Below, piece by piece: positions 6,259 through 8,849 of a DNA stretch of 40,896 bases. The notes under the pieces were generated by a model. It did no database searches and was not told the DNA's origin. It saw nothing but the letters and a program-made list of their open reading frames with translations. The DNA is from Nitrospinota bacterium (lineage in GTDB: Bacteria; Nitrospinota_A; UBA7883). Made by a program: the position numbers and the translations under genes. The stretch lies in assembly GCA_016207925.1 (NCBI GenBank), contig JACQZB010000079.1, positions 1 through 40,896 on the forward strand, given 5' to 3'. Numbering within the stretch: the first letter of the stretch is position 1; each line of letters begins with the position of its first letter.

Positions 6259-6904
6259 TTATTCGCGCAGGGAAACCAATTGCGCGGCGGGGACGGAAAT
6301 CCCATCGCTCACCAGCGAGTAGCCGGTAGTTGAACATGGAGTTGCGGTGGTTGGCGATATTGAACTGCACCACGCCCACCGCCCTTTCCCCAAAGGCGCA
6401 GCGCCTGGCCCCGGCCAGCGGGGGAAGTTTCACCGAGGCGGGAAGCGGCGCGGCGGCGCCGAGTTGTTGGGTAAGCCAGCGCGAGGCTTCGGTGGGGTCG
6501 GGGGTCGCGAGTTCCGGTGTTTCATGCAGGCGGTGGTTCACCAAGGACATCGCCAGAACTTTTTCCACGGGTGTTTTTTCCGTTTGTCGCGAAAGGTAAA
6601 GGGAACCGCTGGTGGCCGCGACGCCCACCGTAAAAAAGGCCATGGCGGCGATGGCGGACAGTTTCATTATCCGGGCCGCGCGCCGGGCGGGGACACCCGC
6701 CAGCGCGAAGGTATCCAGCGTTTGCGGCGGTTCCACCGCAAGCAGCGCGCCGCGTATTTTTTCATCCAGATCCAGCCGCCGGGAAAGCCGGGCGGAGCAG
6801 GGGGGGCACAACCGCGCGTGGGCCAGCGCTTCGGTGAAGAGCGGATCGGCGCTGTCAGGCGAAGGGGCCAGGTCAAGCGCCGCTCTTAGCCGGTCACATT
6901 CCAT
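6259..6904 (-). pseudogene. anti-sigma factor with zinc-finger N-terminus (apparent frameshift near its 3' end)
   Basis: It begins with a short cytoplasmic domain carrying H29-x3-C33-x2-C36, the ZAS-type zinc site of anti-sigma factors that hold ECF sigma factors. One transmembrane helix follows at about residues 80-103, then a periplasmic domain. The frame as written runs on to 5894, inside the opposite-strand glycosyltransferase gene, which is implausible. Dropping one base near 6325 gives a natural end (GYSLVSDGISVPAAQLVSLRE, stop at 6261-6259). The frameshift may be a sequencing fault or a real loss of the C-terminal sensor part. The gene overlaps the sigma gene by 11 nt, so the pair is translationally coupled. 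Confidence 0.75.
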
Positions 6905-7418
6905 ACCGGCCTCCCTTAAGCGCCCGCAGCGGCTGGGCGGGGGCGGAAAGCTCCTCGCGCAACGCCCGCTTGGCGCGGTGGATACGGCTCATCACCGTGC
7001 CCAGGGGCAGCCCCATGGTCTCGGCGATCTCCTGGTAGCTTTGGCCGGATAGATAGTGCGCCACCAACGGGGCGCGGTATTTGTCGTCAAGCCGCTCCAT
7101 GGCCTTGCGCGCCTGCTCCGGTGTGACGTCATGGGGCCAAAGCCTTTCATCGTCCTGGCCGGATGGGGTGTGCGCGTCGTCAACGTATTCAACGGTCTTG
7201 CGAGCGCGCCGCCATTCGTCCACGAATCCGCGGTACAGGATTGAAAACAGCCACGATTTGGCTTTTTCCGGGTTGCGCAGGGCAGGAAGGGAATCGGCGG
7301 CCTTGACCACCGTGTCCTGAACCATGTCCTCCGCCGCGTCGCGGTCGCCGCATAGATGGAAGGCCATCGCGTACAGGGCGTTGACGTGAGGCAGGATAAA
7401 GCGTTCGACAGGGTTCAT
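6894..7418 (-). CDS. RNA polymerase ECF-type sigma factor
   Basis: The protein is about 174 residues and has the two conserved ECF regions. Region 2 (about residues 10-75) includes AAEDMVQDTVVKA and KAKSWLFSILYRGFVDEWRR, which read the -10 element and bind core polymerase. Region 4 (about 115-165) ends in a helix-turn-helix, YQEIAETMGLPLGTVMSRIHRAKR, which reads the -35. I chose the ATG at 7418; an in-frame GTG at 7427 is possible. It overlaps the anti-sigma gene, the classic ECF regulatory pair. Its own upstream region contains GGAATAAA-N13-CGTCTTAT, a likely autoregulated promoter. Confidence 0.9.
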   Translation of the reverse strand: MNPVERFILPHVNALYAMAFHLCGDRDAAEDMVQDTVVKAADSLPALRNPEKAKSWLFSILYRGFVDEWRRARKTVEYVDDAHTPSGQDDERLWPHDVTPEQARKAMERLDDKYRAPLVAHYLSGQSYQEIAETMGLPLGTVMSRIHRAKRALREELSAPAQPLRALKGGRYGM

Positions 7419-7444
7419 GTCAATCACACACCATCATACATACC

Positions 7445-7473
7445 ATAAGACGCTTCACCTTTCATTTTATTCC
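7445..7473 (-). promoter_or_regulatory. ECF-type promoter of the sigma/anti-sigma operon
   Basis: Reading the minus strand, GGAATAAA (7473-7466) is followed after 13 nt by CGTCTTAT (7452-7445). GGAA-type -35 and CGTC-type -10 elements are typical of ECF sigma targets. The expected start falls about 20 nt before the sigma gene. The same motif with the same spacing occurs on the plus strand at 7531-7559, which makes chance unlikely. Confidence 0.72.
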
Positions 7474-7530
7474 CAATAATGCCTGGCTGGCGGAATTTTT
7501 AGCTTCATTTCCATTTTCTCCGCATTTGAG

Positions 7531-7559
7531 GGAATAAAACGGAAAGGCTTCCGTCTTAT
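7531..7559 (+). promoter_or_regulatory. second, outward-facing ECF-type promoter
   Basis: GGAATAAA at 7531-7538, a 13-nt spacer, then CGTCTTAT at 7552-7559. This copies the elements and spacing of the sigma operon promoter but points the other way, into a stretch with no convincing gene before the 3' end of the opposite-strand nucleotidyltransferase gene. It probably drives a short RNA starting near 7565, in the left arm of the inverted repeat. Confidence 0.65.
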
Positions 7560-7624
7560 ACATGACAAGGGCGTCGCATCCGTCCCCCTGGATGTGTCCT
7601 CCCAACGCGCCCTTGTCATGTAAG
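7555..7624 (+). ncRNA. putative ECF-controlled small RNA / long inverted repeat
   Basis: Fifteen bases at 7559-7573 are the exact reverse complement of 7608-7622. CTTA/TAAG extend the arms past a 2-nt bulge, and an inner CATCC/GGATG stem lies between them. Transcription from the promoter at 7531-7559 would begin within the left arm and give an RNA with a strong 5' hairpin. A leaderless 22-codon reading frame starts at the ATG at 7562 but has no ribosome site and no recognisable motif. I favour a non-coding RNA. A miniature repeat element is the alternative. Confidence 0.4.
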
Positions 7625-7664
7625 CGGTGACCGGAGTCCCCTTCTCCACCCCGCGGCCCGCGAA

Positions 7665-7698
7665 GGGCGCGGACGGCTCGCTGGAGCCTTCCGCGCCC
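7665..7698. terminator. strong GC hairpin after the SpsF-like gene
   Basis: GGGCGCGGA (7665-7673) pairs with TCCGCGCCC (7690-7698). Inside, GGCTC (7675-7679) pairs with GAGCC (7684-7688) over a 4-nt loop, giving a 14-bp stem with one mismatch. It lies 14 nt past the stop of the minus-strand nucleotidyltransferase gene. There is no T-run on either strand, so it is an mRNA-end structure or terminator of uncertain type. Confidence 0.45.
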
Positions 7699-7711
7699 GC
7701 GCGGCGCATCC

Positions 7712-8461
7712 TTATTCATTGCGCCAGTTTTTCTGGACAACGCTCCCGTTCATGGCGCGCAGGTCAGGATCCTTGTCAAGCAACGCCACGGCGGCGCGCG
7801 AATTGAAGTTTTGCCCCATCGCCGCCAGCTTGGCGTAAAGCGCGCGCATCAGCGCCAAATCCTCCCGCGTATCCACCGTCAGGCGGTACGCGGCGCGCCC
7901 CGCCAGCCAGTCCGGCGGCGTGACCATGCGGACCTTGAACCGCTCCGGTTGCGAGTGAATGAACGTTGTGACGTGTTCGCGGAAGCGTGGTTCGACCGCT
8001 TCGGCGTCCGCCAGCCGCAGGGCCGCGGCGCTGGCAACTTCCGCCACCGATCCCAAGGGAGCGCCGCCCGCGCCCACCCAATCGGCCTTTTCGCGGATCA
8101 GTTCGGTGGTCATCATCCCCAGCGTTTCGGGATCCAGCAGCGGATTGTCCGCCGTGGCGCGCACGGCGGCGGCGGCGGGGTACTCGTCGAGCGCGATGAC
8201 AAAACGCCGCAGCACGTCTTCCTCCGGGCCGGTGACGCAGGGTATCCCCAGTGCGCGGGCGTAGCTGACCACCCGCGCGTCCGCCGGATTGGTGGAAGTG
8301 GCGATAACGATACGTTCGATTCCCGGCGTCCGGCGCAGCCGTTCTATTACCCAGCCCAGCAGCGGTTTATCGCCGATAGGCTCGAAGATTTTCCCCGGCA
8401 GGCGGGTGGAAGCCACACGGGCCTGAAGGATGGCTTGCAGGGTGACAGTGGGCGCGCTCAT
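7712..8461 (-). CDS. SpsF-like cytidylyltransferase family protein
   Basis: The 249-residue protein belongs to the CMP-sugar synthetase-like nucleotidyltransferases, subgroup SpsF (spore coat polysaccharide biosynthesis protein F homologues). The N-terminal LQARVASTRLPGKIF is the family's NTP-binding loop (consensus QAR.GSTRLPGK). Other marks are ATSTNPADA, the GPEEDVLRRF segment and the RATADNPLLDPE metal-binding region near residue 105. SpsF proteins activate an acidic or nonulosonic-type sugar with CTP; the exact sugar is not known from sequence. It stands alone between the ECF region and the sucC promoter region. Confidence 0.82.
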   Translation of the reverse strand: MSAPTVTLQAILQARVASTRLPGKIFEPIGDKPLLGWVIERLRRTPGIERIVIATSTNPADARVVSYARALGIPCVTGPEEDVLRRFVIALDEYPAAAAVRATADNPLLDPETLGMMTTELIREKADWVGAGGAPLGSVAEVASAAALRLADAEAVEPRFREHVTTFIHSQPERFKVRMVTPPDWLAGRAAYRLTVDTREDLALMRALYAKLAAMGQNFNSRAAVALLDKDPDLRAMNGSVVQKNWRNE

Positions 8462-8849
8462 GGTTGTTGGATTATAACCCGGTTAGGCGGCGCGCCCTCA
8501 ACCGGGGTCATACGGCATTCTCATGCCACCAGAATGAGCTTGGCAAAAGAGTGACGGTGACAGGTCATCTGTATCATGCCCATGCCGCAAGGCATAAAAC
8601 CAACGCGCTCATCAAACCTACCCAGATCAGGCTAGTGAAGCAGCCGCTCTCTTTCACCGCCTGCCTATGGTACTGGCAGCACGGCACCGCCACGCTCCTA
8701 CAACCCCCTGGGCGCCCTTTGCCCCTCGCCCCTTTTGGAGAGGGTGGCGCGTTTCGCGCCGGGTGAGTGGGATATGAAAACCGTGGTCAGACAGCCATGA
8801 GAAAAAAGTAAAGGGCCGACGCCCCGCCCTGGATTATGTGACCTTTGTT
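8462..8849. other. long intergenic stretch upstream of the sucC promoter
   Basis: I see no convincing gene here. A 100-codon open frame (8464-8766) has no ribosome site and no recognisable domain. There are two small hairpins: CATTCT/AGAATG around 8516-8537, and ATGCC-GCAA-GGCAT around 8582-8595, which has a GNRA-type loop. A structured intergenic repeat lies at 8722-8767. Confidence 0.5.
8722..8767. repeat. two-hairpin intergenic repeat unit
   Basis: A CCCTC...GAGAGGG stem is followed by a perfect GGCGCG-TTT-CGCGCC hairpin (8746-8760) and GGGTGAG. This resembles the widespread proteobacterial intergenic element in which a CCCTCTCC/GGAGAGGG stem is joined to a GCGCG stem. A partial relative lies at 2215-2238. 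Confidence 0.5.

What the first reader, a model, noticed from the sequence alone, without database searches (positions are those of the whole stretch)
7445..7559. Twin divergent ECF promoters, one driving an unassigned transcript
GGAATAAA-N13-CGTCTTAT occurs on the minus strand (7473-7445), in front of the ECF sigma gene, and again on the plus strand (7531-7559) with identical boxes and spacing. The plus copy points into a region with no convincing gene, so the sigma factor probably makes a short RNA or tiny peptide as well as itself. That would be an undescribed output of this regulator.
Basis: partly seen in the sequence, partly recalled or inferred. Interest (0 to 1): 0.8.

Follow-up and report, generated by a model that had tools for sequence, protein, structure and literature searches.

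The report
Sigma-factor promoter driving a C-rich-loop sRNA
A bacterial stress-type sigma factor has, next to its own gene, a second copy of its promoter that appears to make a small hairpin RNA with a C-rich loop able to pair with ribosome-binding sites, and three related bacteria carry a similar hairpin behind the same promoter.

Summary
GGAATAAA-N13-CGTCTTAT occurs exactly twice in the window and exactly twice in the 2.67-Mb genome, back to back upstream of an ECF sigma gene. Across 24 genomes of the phylum the core motif occurs only in the four that own this sigma factor, and five of its six copies lie at the sigma locus. The plus copy does not point into empty sequence. At its expected start site (7560) a near-perfect hairpin begins (7560-7621, fold z = -8.0) with the loop UCCCCC and a bulge UCCUCCCAAC. 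In the three relatives with the sigma factor, a C-run hairpin also lies directly behind the ECF promoter, but there it sits in the sigma gene's own 5' leader. In this genome it has its own divergent promoter. The best reading is a sigma-dependent, Hfq-independent trans-acting sRNA that blocks G-rich ribosome-binding sites, functionally like FoxJ/FoxI of Fusobacterium, sX13 and RepG. A tiny peptide is not supported. Transcription, RNA ends and targets are inferred, not shown. Covariation could not be tested, and two of the four hairpins are not unusually stable. This is a new member of a known kind, of moderate interest.

The parts
6894..7418 (-). ECF sigma factor gene (174 aa)
   Evidence: Pfam Sigma70_r2 (1e-12) and Sigma70_r4_2 (5e-17); orthologs of 50-56% identity in G003, G008, G009
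6326..6904 (-). anti-sigma gene, conserved part (one hydrophobic stretch; sensor tail disrupted relative to relatives)
   Evidence: homologous to the 249-253 aa partners of G003, G008, G009 up to residue ~193, then deletion and frameshift
7445..7473 (-). P1: ECF promoter GGAATAAA-N13-CGTCTTAT of the sigma gene
   Evidence: exact match; unique in genome together with P2
7531..7559 (+). P2: identical ECF promoter, divergent, driving the hairpin RNA
   Evidence: exact match; core motif found in the phylum only in genomes with this sigma factor
7560..7621 (+). candidate sRNA, 5' hairpin: 15-bp perfect outer stem, 8-bp inner stem
   Evidence: MFE -35.3 kcal/mol, z -8.0, 0 of 200 shuffles; longest-stemmed C-run hairpin of 80 C-runs in the window, both strands
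7583..7589 (+). UCCCCCU: C-rich apical loop (UCCCCC unpaired), putative seed
   Evidence: unpaired in the fold; same heptamer as sX13 loop 3 and HPnc5490/RepG (PMC3771888)
7597..7606 (+). UCCUCCCAAC: unpaired bulge containing an anti-Shine-Dalgarno-like CCUCC
   Evidence: unpaired in the fold
7665..7698 (+). GC-rich stem-loop, possible 3' boundary of the RNA and/or end of the convergent gene's transcript (no good U-tract)
   Evidence: fold of 7560-7725; weak terminator-like call nearby
7712..8461 (-). convergent cytidylyltransferase gene (KdsB-like); not conserved as a neighbour in the relatives
   Evidence: CTP_transf_3 4.5e-28; ncbifam best hits KDO cytidylyltransferase, below cut-off

Best explanation
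The ECF sigma factor reads two identical promoters: P1 makes its own mRNA, and P2 makes a short non-coding RNA (about 60-150 nt) starting at about 7560. The RNA folds into a stable hairpin that exposes UCCCCC and UCCUCCCAAC. These pair with G-rich ribosome-binding sites of target mRNAs and block translation, without Hfq, giving the sigma factor a repressing arm. In the three relatives a C-run hairpin is the 5' leader of the sigma mRNA itself (released by termination or processing, or acting as a leader-derived sRNA). In this genome it has become a separate divergent gene with its own promoter. Supported by computation: the promoters, their link to the sigma factor, the hairpin in this genome, and C-run hairpins at the same place in the relatives. 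Inferred: transcription, RNA ends, common descent of the hairpins, trans action and targets.
For: Exact twin promoters, unique in the genome. The core motif occurs in the phylum only in the 4 genomes with the sigma factor, 6 hits vs 0 for the reversed control, and 5 of the 6 lie at the sigma locus. A hairpin begins at the expected +1 with z = -8.0. In each of the four sigma loci, the C-run hairpin with the longest stem on either strand of the stretch examined is the one directly behind the ECF promoter. In G008 it ends in a U-run, like a terminator. The hairpin is outside the sigma mRNA in this genome but keeps an identical promoter, which argues for action of the RNA itself. No Hfq was found in 12 genomes of the order, in line with Hfq-independent C-rich-loop sRNAs (PMC3771888, PMC11005410). 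No mobile copy of the hairpin: single copy in the genome.
Against: No expression data. The four hairpins cannot be aligned over the stem, so covariation is untestable. The hairpins of G009 and G003 are not more stable than shuffles (z -1.7). There is no clear terminator behind the hairpin in this genome. The C-run criterion was chosen after seeing the sequences. Targets are only leads: a FadL-type porin coding region with 17 of 20 bases complementary, where a chance match of that quality is expected about 0.2 times per genome; and G9/G11 tracts before two envelope-protein genes in G008.
Confidence: 0.6

Rival explanations
1. Antisense regulator: the P2 transcript runs through the hairpin and silences the convergent KdsB-like gene (7712-8461), linking the sigma factor to lipopolysaccharide synthesis. 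The 5' hairpin only stabilises the RNA.
For: The gene is convergent 90 bp downstream, and there is no strong U-tract terminator in between.
Against: The gene is not a neighbour in the three relatives, whereas a C-run hairpin sits behind the promoter in all of them. A GC-rich stem-loop (7665-7698) lies between.
Confidence: 0.15
2. Cis-acting leader: the hairpin family is an attenuator or protective leader of the sigma mRNA, and the divergent copy in this genome is a relic of a rearrangement.
For: In three relatives the hairpin lies in the leader, 130-200 nt before the sigma start; in G008 it looks like an intrinsic terminator.
Against: In this genome the hairpin is not in the sigma mRNA, yet it keeps an intact promoter with identical boxes and a perfect stem, unlike decaying sequence.
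Confidence: 0.13
3. The plus copy drives a tiny peptide (MTRASHPSPWMCPPNAPLSCKR, 7562-7630).
For: An ATG lies 2 nt downstream of the expected start; leaderless translation is possible.
Against: No Shine-Dalgarno sequence, the frame is buried in a 15-bp stem, no family, no comparable peptide seen in the relatives.
Confidence: 0.04
4. The hairpin is merely the transcription terminator of the convergent KdsB-like gene, and P2 is a fortuitous or bidirectional duplicate of P1.
For: An inverted repeat about 90 bp after the stop codon of a convergent gene.
Against: No U-tract on that strand; another stem (7665-7698) is closer; no convergent gene at the hairpin in the relatives; exact placement at +1 of an identical promoter.
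Confidence: 0.08

Closest known systems
FoxI / FoxJ of Fusobacterium nucleatum (sigmaE-dependent sRNAs; PMC11005410)
   Same: ECF-sigma-dependent sRNAs sharing -35/-10 boxes with the sigma gene's own promoter; cytosine-stretch seed, in FoxJ in a hairpin loop; no Hfq; FoxJ was first taken for a 5' UTR
   Different: FoxJ lies upstream of ylmH, not next to rpoE; no sequence relation could be shown; targets here unknown; here the RNA is divergent from the sigma gene or in its leader
sX13 of Xanthomonas and HPnc5490/RepG of Helicobacter (PMC3771888)
   Same: C-rich hairpin loops; the UCCCCCU heptamer reported for sX13 loop 3 and HPnc5490 is present in the loop here; sX13 acts on G-rich motifs near start codons without Hfq
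   Different: Dependence on an ECF sigma factor is proposed here only; one main hairpin here instead of three loops in sX13
RybB / MicA (Salmonella, PMC1804206) and VrrA (Vibrio, PMC2628432), sigmaE-dependent sRNAs
   Same: Repressing non-coding arm of an envelope-stress ECF sigma factor
   Different: RybB and MicA are Hfq-dependent (from general knowledge) and lie away from rpoE; no C-rich loop seed of this kind; porin targets proven there, only a lead here
Mycobacterial 6C/B11 RNA (NAR 47:4292, cited in PMC8557902; PMC12395582)
   Same: C-rich loops pairing with G-rich mRNA sites, chaperone-independent
   Different: Rfam scan gives no hit here; different structure; sigma dependence not shown for 6C
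Pos19 of Rhodobacter sphaeroides (PMC5036791)
   Same: sRNA directly behind a perfect ECF (RpoE) promoter
   Different: Pos19 is coding, Hfq-dependent and not next to rpoE

Membership tests
ECF (group 4) sigma factor with cognate anti-sigma and autoregulation | Regions sigma2 and sigma4 only; gene followed by a membrane anti-sigma gene | tested here: met
   (Sigma70_r2, r4_2; TIGR02937 above cut-off); overlapping anti-sigma with one hydrophobic stretch, conserved pair in 4 genomes
ECF (group 4) sigma factor with cognate anti-sigma and autoregulation | Own promoter with ECF-type -35 (GGAAT) and -10 (CGTC) boxes | tested here: met
ECF-sigma-dependent sRNA (FoxJ / RybB type) | sRNA promoter shares the boxes of the sigma gene's own promoter | tested here: met
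   16 of 16 box positions identical
ECF-sigma-dependent sRNA (FoxJ / RybB type) | Transcript present only when the sigma factor is active | not testable with these tools
   needs RNA data
ECF-sigma-dependent sRNA (FoxJ / RybB type) | Discrete 3' end (terminator or processing) | tested here: inconclusive
   No clear U-tract in this genome; terminator-like hairpin in G008
ECF-sigma-dependent sRNA (FoxJ / RybB type) | Represses porin or other envelope mRNAs by base pairing | tested here: inconclusive
   Only leads: FadL-type CDS 17/20 complementary; G9 tract before a cox2-like gene in G008
C-rich-loop sRNAs (sX13, RepG, 6C) | Hairpin with exposed C-run in the loop | tested here: met
C-rich-loop sRNAs (sX13, RepG, 6C) | Member of a described Rfam family (6C, sX13 etc.) | tested here: not met
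   No Rfam match at gathering score in the window; none plausible at relaxed thresholds in 7400-7760 and the relatives' loci
C-rich-loop sRNAs (sX13, RepG, 6C) | Works without Hfq | tested here: inconclusive
   Hfq (PF17209) not found in 12 genomes of the order; found in 5 of 14 controls; action itself untested

The most novel reading that the evidence does not exclude
The C-loop RNA, not a protein regulon, is the main output of this sigma factor: in this genome the only promoters of its type are P1 and P2. The gene for the RNA has moved from the sigma gene's 5' leader (relatives) to an autonomous divergent unit, a natural uncoupling that shows how a leader-derived sRNA becomes a stand-alone one, in a phylum for which the papers searched here describe no sRNA.
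Probability: 0.3. Interest if true: 0.65.

Novelty: new member of a known kind. Interest (0 to 1): 0.48.

Why it matters
Sigma-dependent repressing sRNAs are established in Proteobacteria and Fusobacteria. A case in another phylum without Hfq, tied physically to the sigma gene and with the same UCCCCCU seed as unrelated sRNAs, would support the idea that ECF envelope regulators repeatedly acquire a C-rich anti-Shine-Dalgarno RNA as their negative arm. It would also give a clean example of a leader hairpin turning into a separate sRNA gene.

Tried and rejected
Tiny peptide: frame inside the stem, no SD, no family. Rfam families: no match. Mobile hairpin (MITE): single copy in the genome. Larger regulon: sites with 3 mismatches at control level; the one extra relaxed site lies inside a long coding frame. 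More distant sigma homologs (22 genomes of a 385-genome sample, and 36 named contigs): none has the promoter plus C-run hairpin; G054 has the promoter with a G-rich leader instead. Covariation on the four RNAs: not alignable. Target search by complement: one FadL-type coding region and two G-tract RBS candidates in G008, kept as leads only. The 25-bp match at G000:C170 lies between the two promoters, outside both transcripts, and falls in a coding region; taken as chance. Literature search for a C-rich-loop sRNA of an ECF sigma factor encoded beside the sigma gene found none.

Full report
Observation. The motif GGAATAAA-N13-CGTCTTAT is present exactly at 7473-7445 (-) and 7531-7559 (+), and nowhere else in the window with up to three mismatches. 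Over the whole 2.67-Mb genome these are the only two sites with 0-2 mismatches; the nine further 3-mismatch sites are at the level of the reversed control pattern. A shorter core, GGAATA-N14-16-CGTCT, adds a single site inside a long coding frame. The minus copy stands about 27 bp before the start codon of an ECF sigma gene, which overlaps an anti-sigma gene. Apart from the boxes the spacers differ.

Link to the sigma factor. The sigma gene has orthologs (50-56% identity) only in G003, G008 and G009 among 24 genomes of the phylum; other homologs in a sample of 385 genomes are far weaker. Its anti-sigma partner has the same distribution. The core promoter GGAATAA-N13/14-YGTCTTA was searched without mismatches in the same 24 genomes: six hits, all in those four genomes, zero for the reversed control. 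Five of the six lie at the sigma locus (two in G000, one each in G003, G008, G009). The sixth (G008) precedes a gene for a secreted SoxA/TsdA-type cytochrome c. This is strong computational evidence that the motif is the recognition sequence of this sigma factor.

What P2 makes. The expected start is about 7560, six to eight bases after CGTC (general knowledge of ECF promoters). Exactly there begins an inverted repeat that folds as RNA into a hairpin of 62 nt with a 15-bp perfect outer stem, an 8-bp inner stem, the loop UCCCCC (7583-7588) and an unpaired bulge UCCUCCCAAC (7597-7606); energy -35.3 kcal/mol, z = -8.0, no shuffle as stable. Both single-stranded parts are C-rich, and the bulge contains CCUCC, the anti-Shine-Dalgarno core. 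No protein gene follows: the 22-codon frame at 7562 lies in the stem and has no Shine-Dalgarno sequence; the antisense frame 7811-8551 matches nothing; 8464-8766 is a remnant with a DUF4431 hit. Rfam has no match.

Relatives. In G009, G008 and G003 the ECF promoter lies 230-280 bp before the sigma gene and on the same strand, and a C-run hairpin follows: C10 in an 11-bp stem (G009), C9 in a 16-bp stem ending in a U-run (G008), and UAUCCCCCUCGAUUUAU in a 7-bp stem (G003). In each of the four stretches examined (9-41 kb, both strands), the C-run hairpin with the longest stem is the one directly behind this promoter: first of 80, 42, 7 and 11 C-runs. I chose this measure after seeing the sequences, and the hairpins of G009 and G003 are not more stable than shuffles by themselves (z about -1.7). 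The RNAs cannot be aligned over the stem, so covariation is not testable. Common descent of the hairpins is therefore likely but not shown. More distant sigma homologs lack the arrangement.

Mechanism. In the relatives the hairpin could be a cis-acting leader. In this genome it has been separated from the sigma mRNA and yet keeps a promoter identical in all 16 box positions and a perfect stem, so the RNA itself most likely acts in trans. C-rich loops are known to bind G-rich ribosome-binding regions: sX13 needs its C-rich loops and G-rich motifs in its targets and acts without Hfq, and its loop 3 and HPnc5490 share UCCCCCU (PMC3771888), the heptamer found here. FoxJ, dependent on the ECF sigmaE of Fusobacterium, carries its C-stretch seed in a hairpin loop, shares the promoter boxes of rpoE, represses the porin FomA and was first annotated as a 5' UTR (PMC11005410). 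No Hfq gene was found in 12 genomes of this order, while the same search found it in control genomes. I therefore propose an Hfq-independent sRNA forming the repressing arm of this sigma factor. Steps supported by computation: promoters, sigma linkage, hairpin, C-rich loop, position in relatives. Steps inferred: transcription, 3' end, trans action, repression.

Targets. In this genome the only further site with up to three mismatches to the complement of the loop hairpin (20 bases) lies on the sense strand deep inside a FadL/TodX-type outer-membrane protein gene; by my estimate about 0.2 such matches are expected by chance, and both RNAs are folded there, so it is a lead only. In G008, G9 and G11 tracts stand 11 and 17 nt before the start codons of a cox2-like gene and of a likely lipoprotein gene; again leads. 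The anti-sigma gene of this genome has the strong site AAGGGAGG five bases before its start, which the bulge could cover, but any strong Shine-Dalgarno site would do so.

Judgement. As a kind, a sigma-dependent sRNA with a C-rich seed is known. The phylum, the physical link to the sigma gene, and the apparent leader-to-gene relocation are new details. The phylum itself could not be named with these tools.

Noticed in passing
window 6260-6904 (-): The anti-sigma gene matches its relatives only to about residue 193. The next conserved block (GYSLVSD) follows at once in the +1 frame, so about 31 codons are missing with a frameshift; the sensor tail is decayed or the assembly is wrong there.
   Followed up: partly
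window 8464-8766 (+): Gene remnant with a DUF4431 match (E 7e-8, above the curated cut-off) without a convincing start, between the KdsB-like gene and sucC.
   Followed up: partly
window about 8713-8790: Dispersed intergenic repeat: at least 16 further partial copies (76-92% identity) in the genome.
   Followed up: partly
L069 (G008:C176), promoter at about 1501-1527: A further copy of the ECF promoter in G008 drives a secreted SoxA/TsdA-type cytochrome c with CNPC repeats, the only protein-coding candidate regulon member found.
   Followed up: partly
L074 (G054), leader of the sigma homolog: A 41%-identical sigma homolog has a GGAATA-CGTCTTA promoter followed by a hairpin-like leader with a G-rich loop (GGGGAGGGGGAAUGGG), the mirror image of the C-rich loops.
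   Followed up: no
L101 and L127 (G008): G9 and G11 tracts stand at about ribosome-binding distance before a cox2-like gene and a likely lipoprotein gene; possible partners of the C9 loop or phase-variable tracts.
   Followed up: partly
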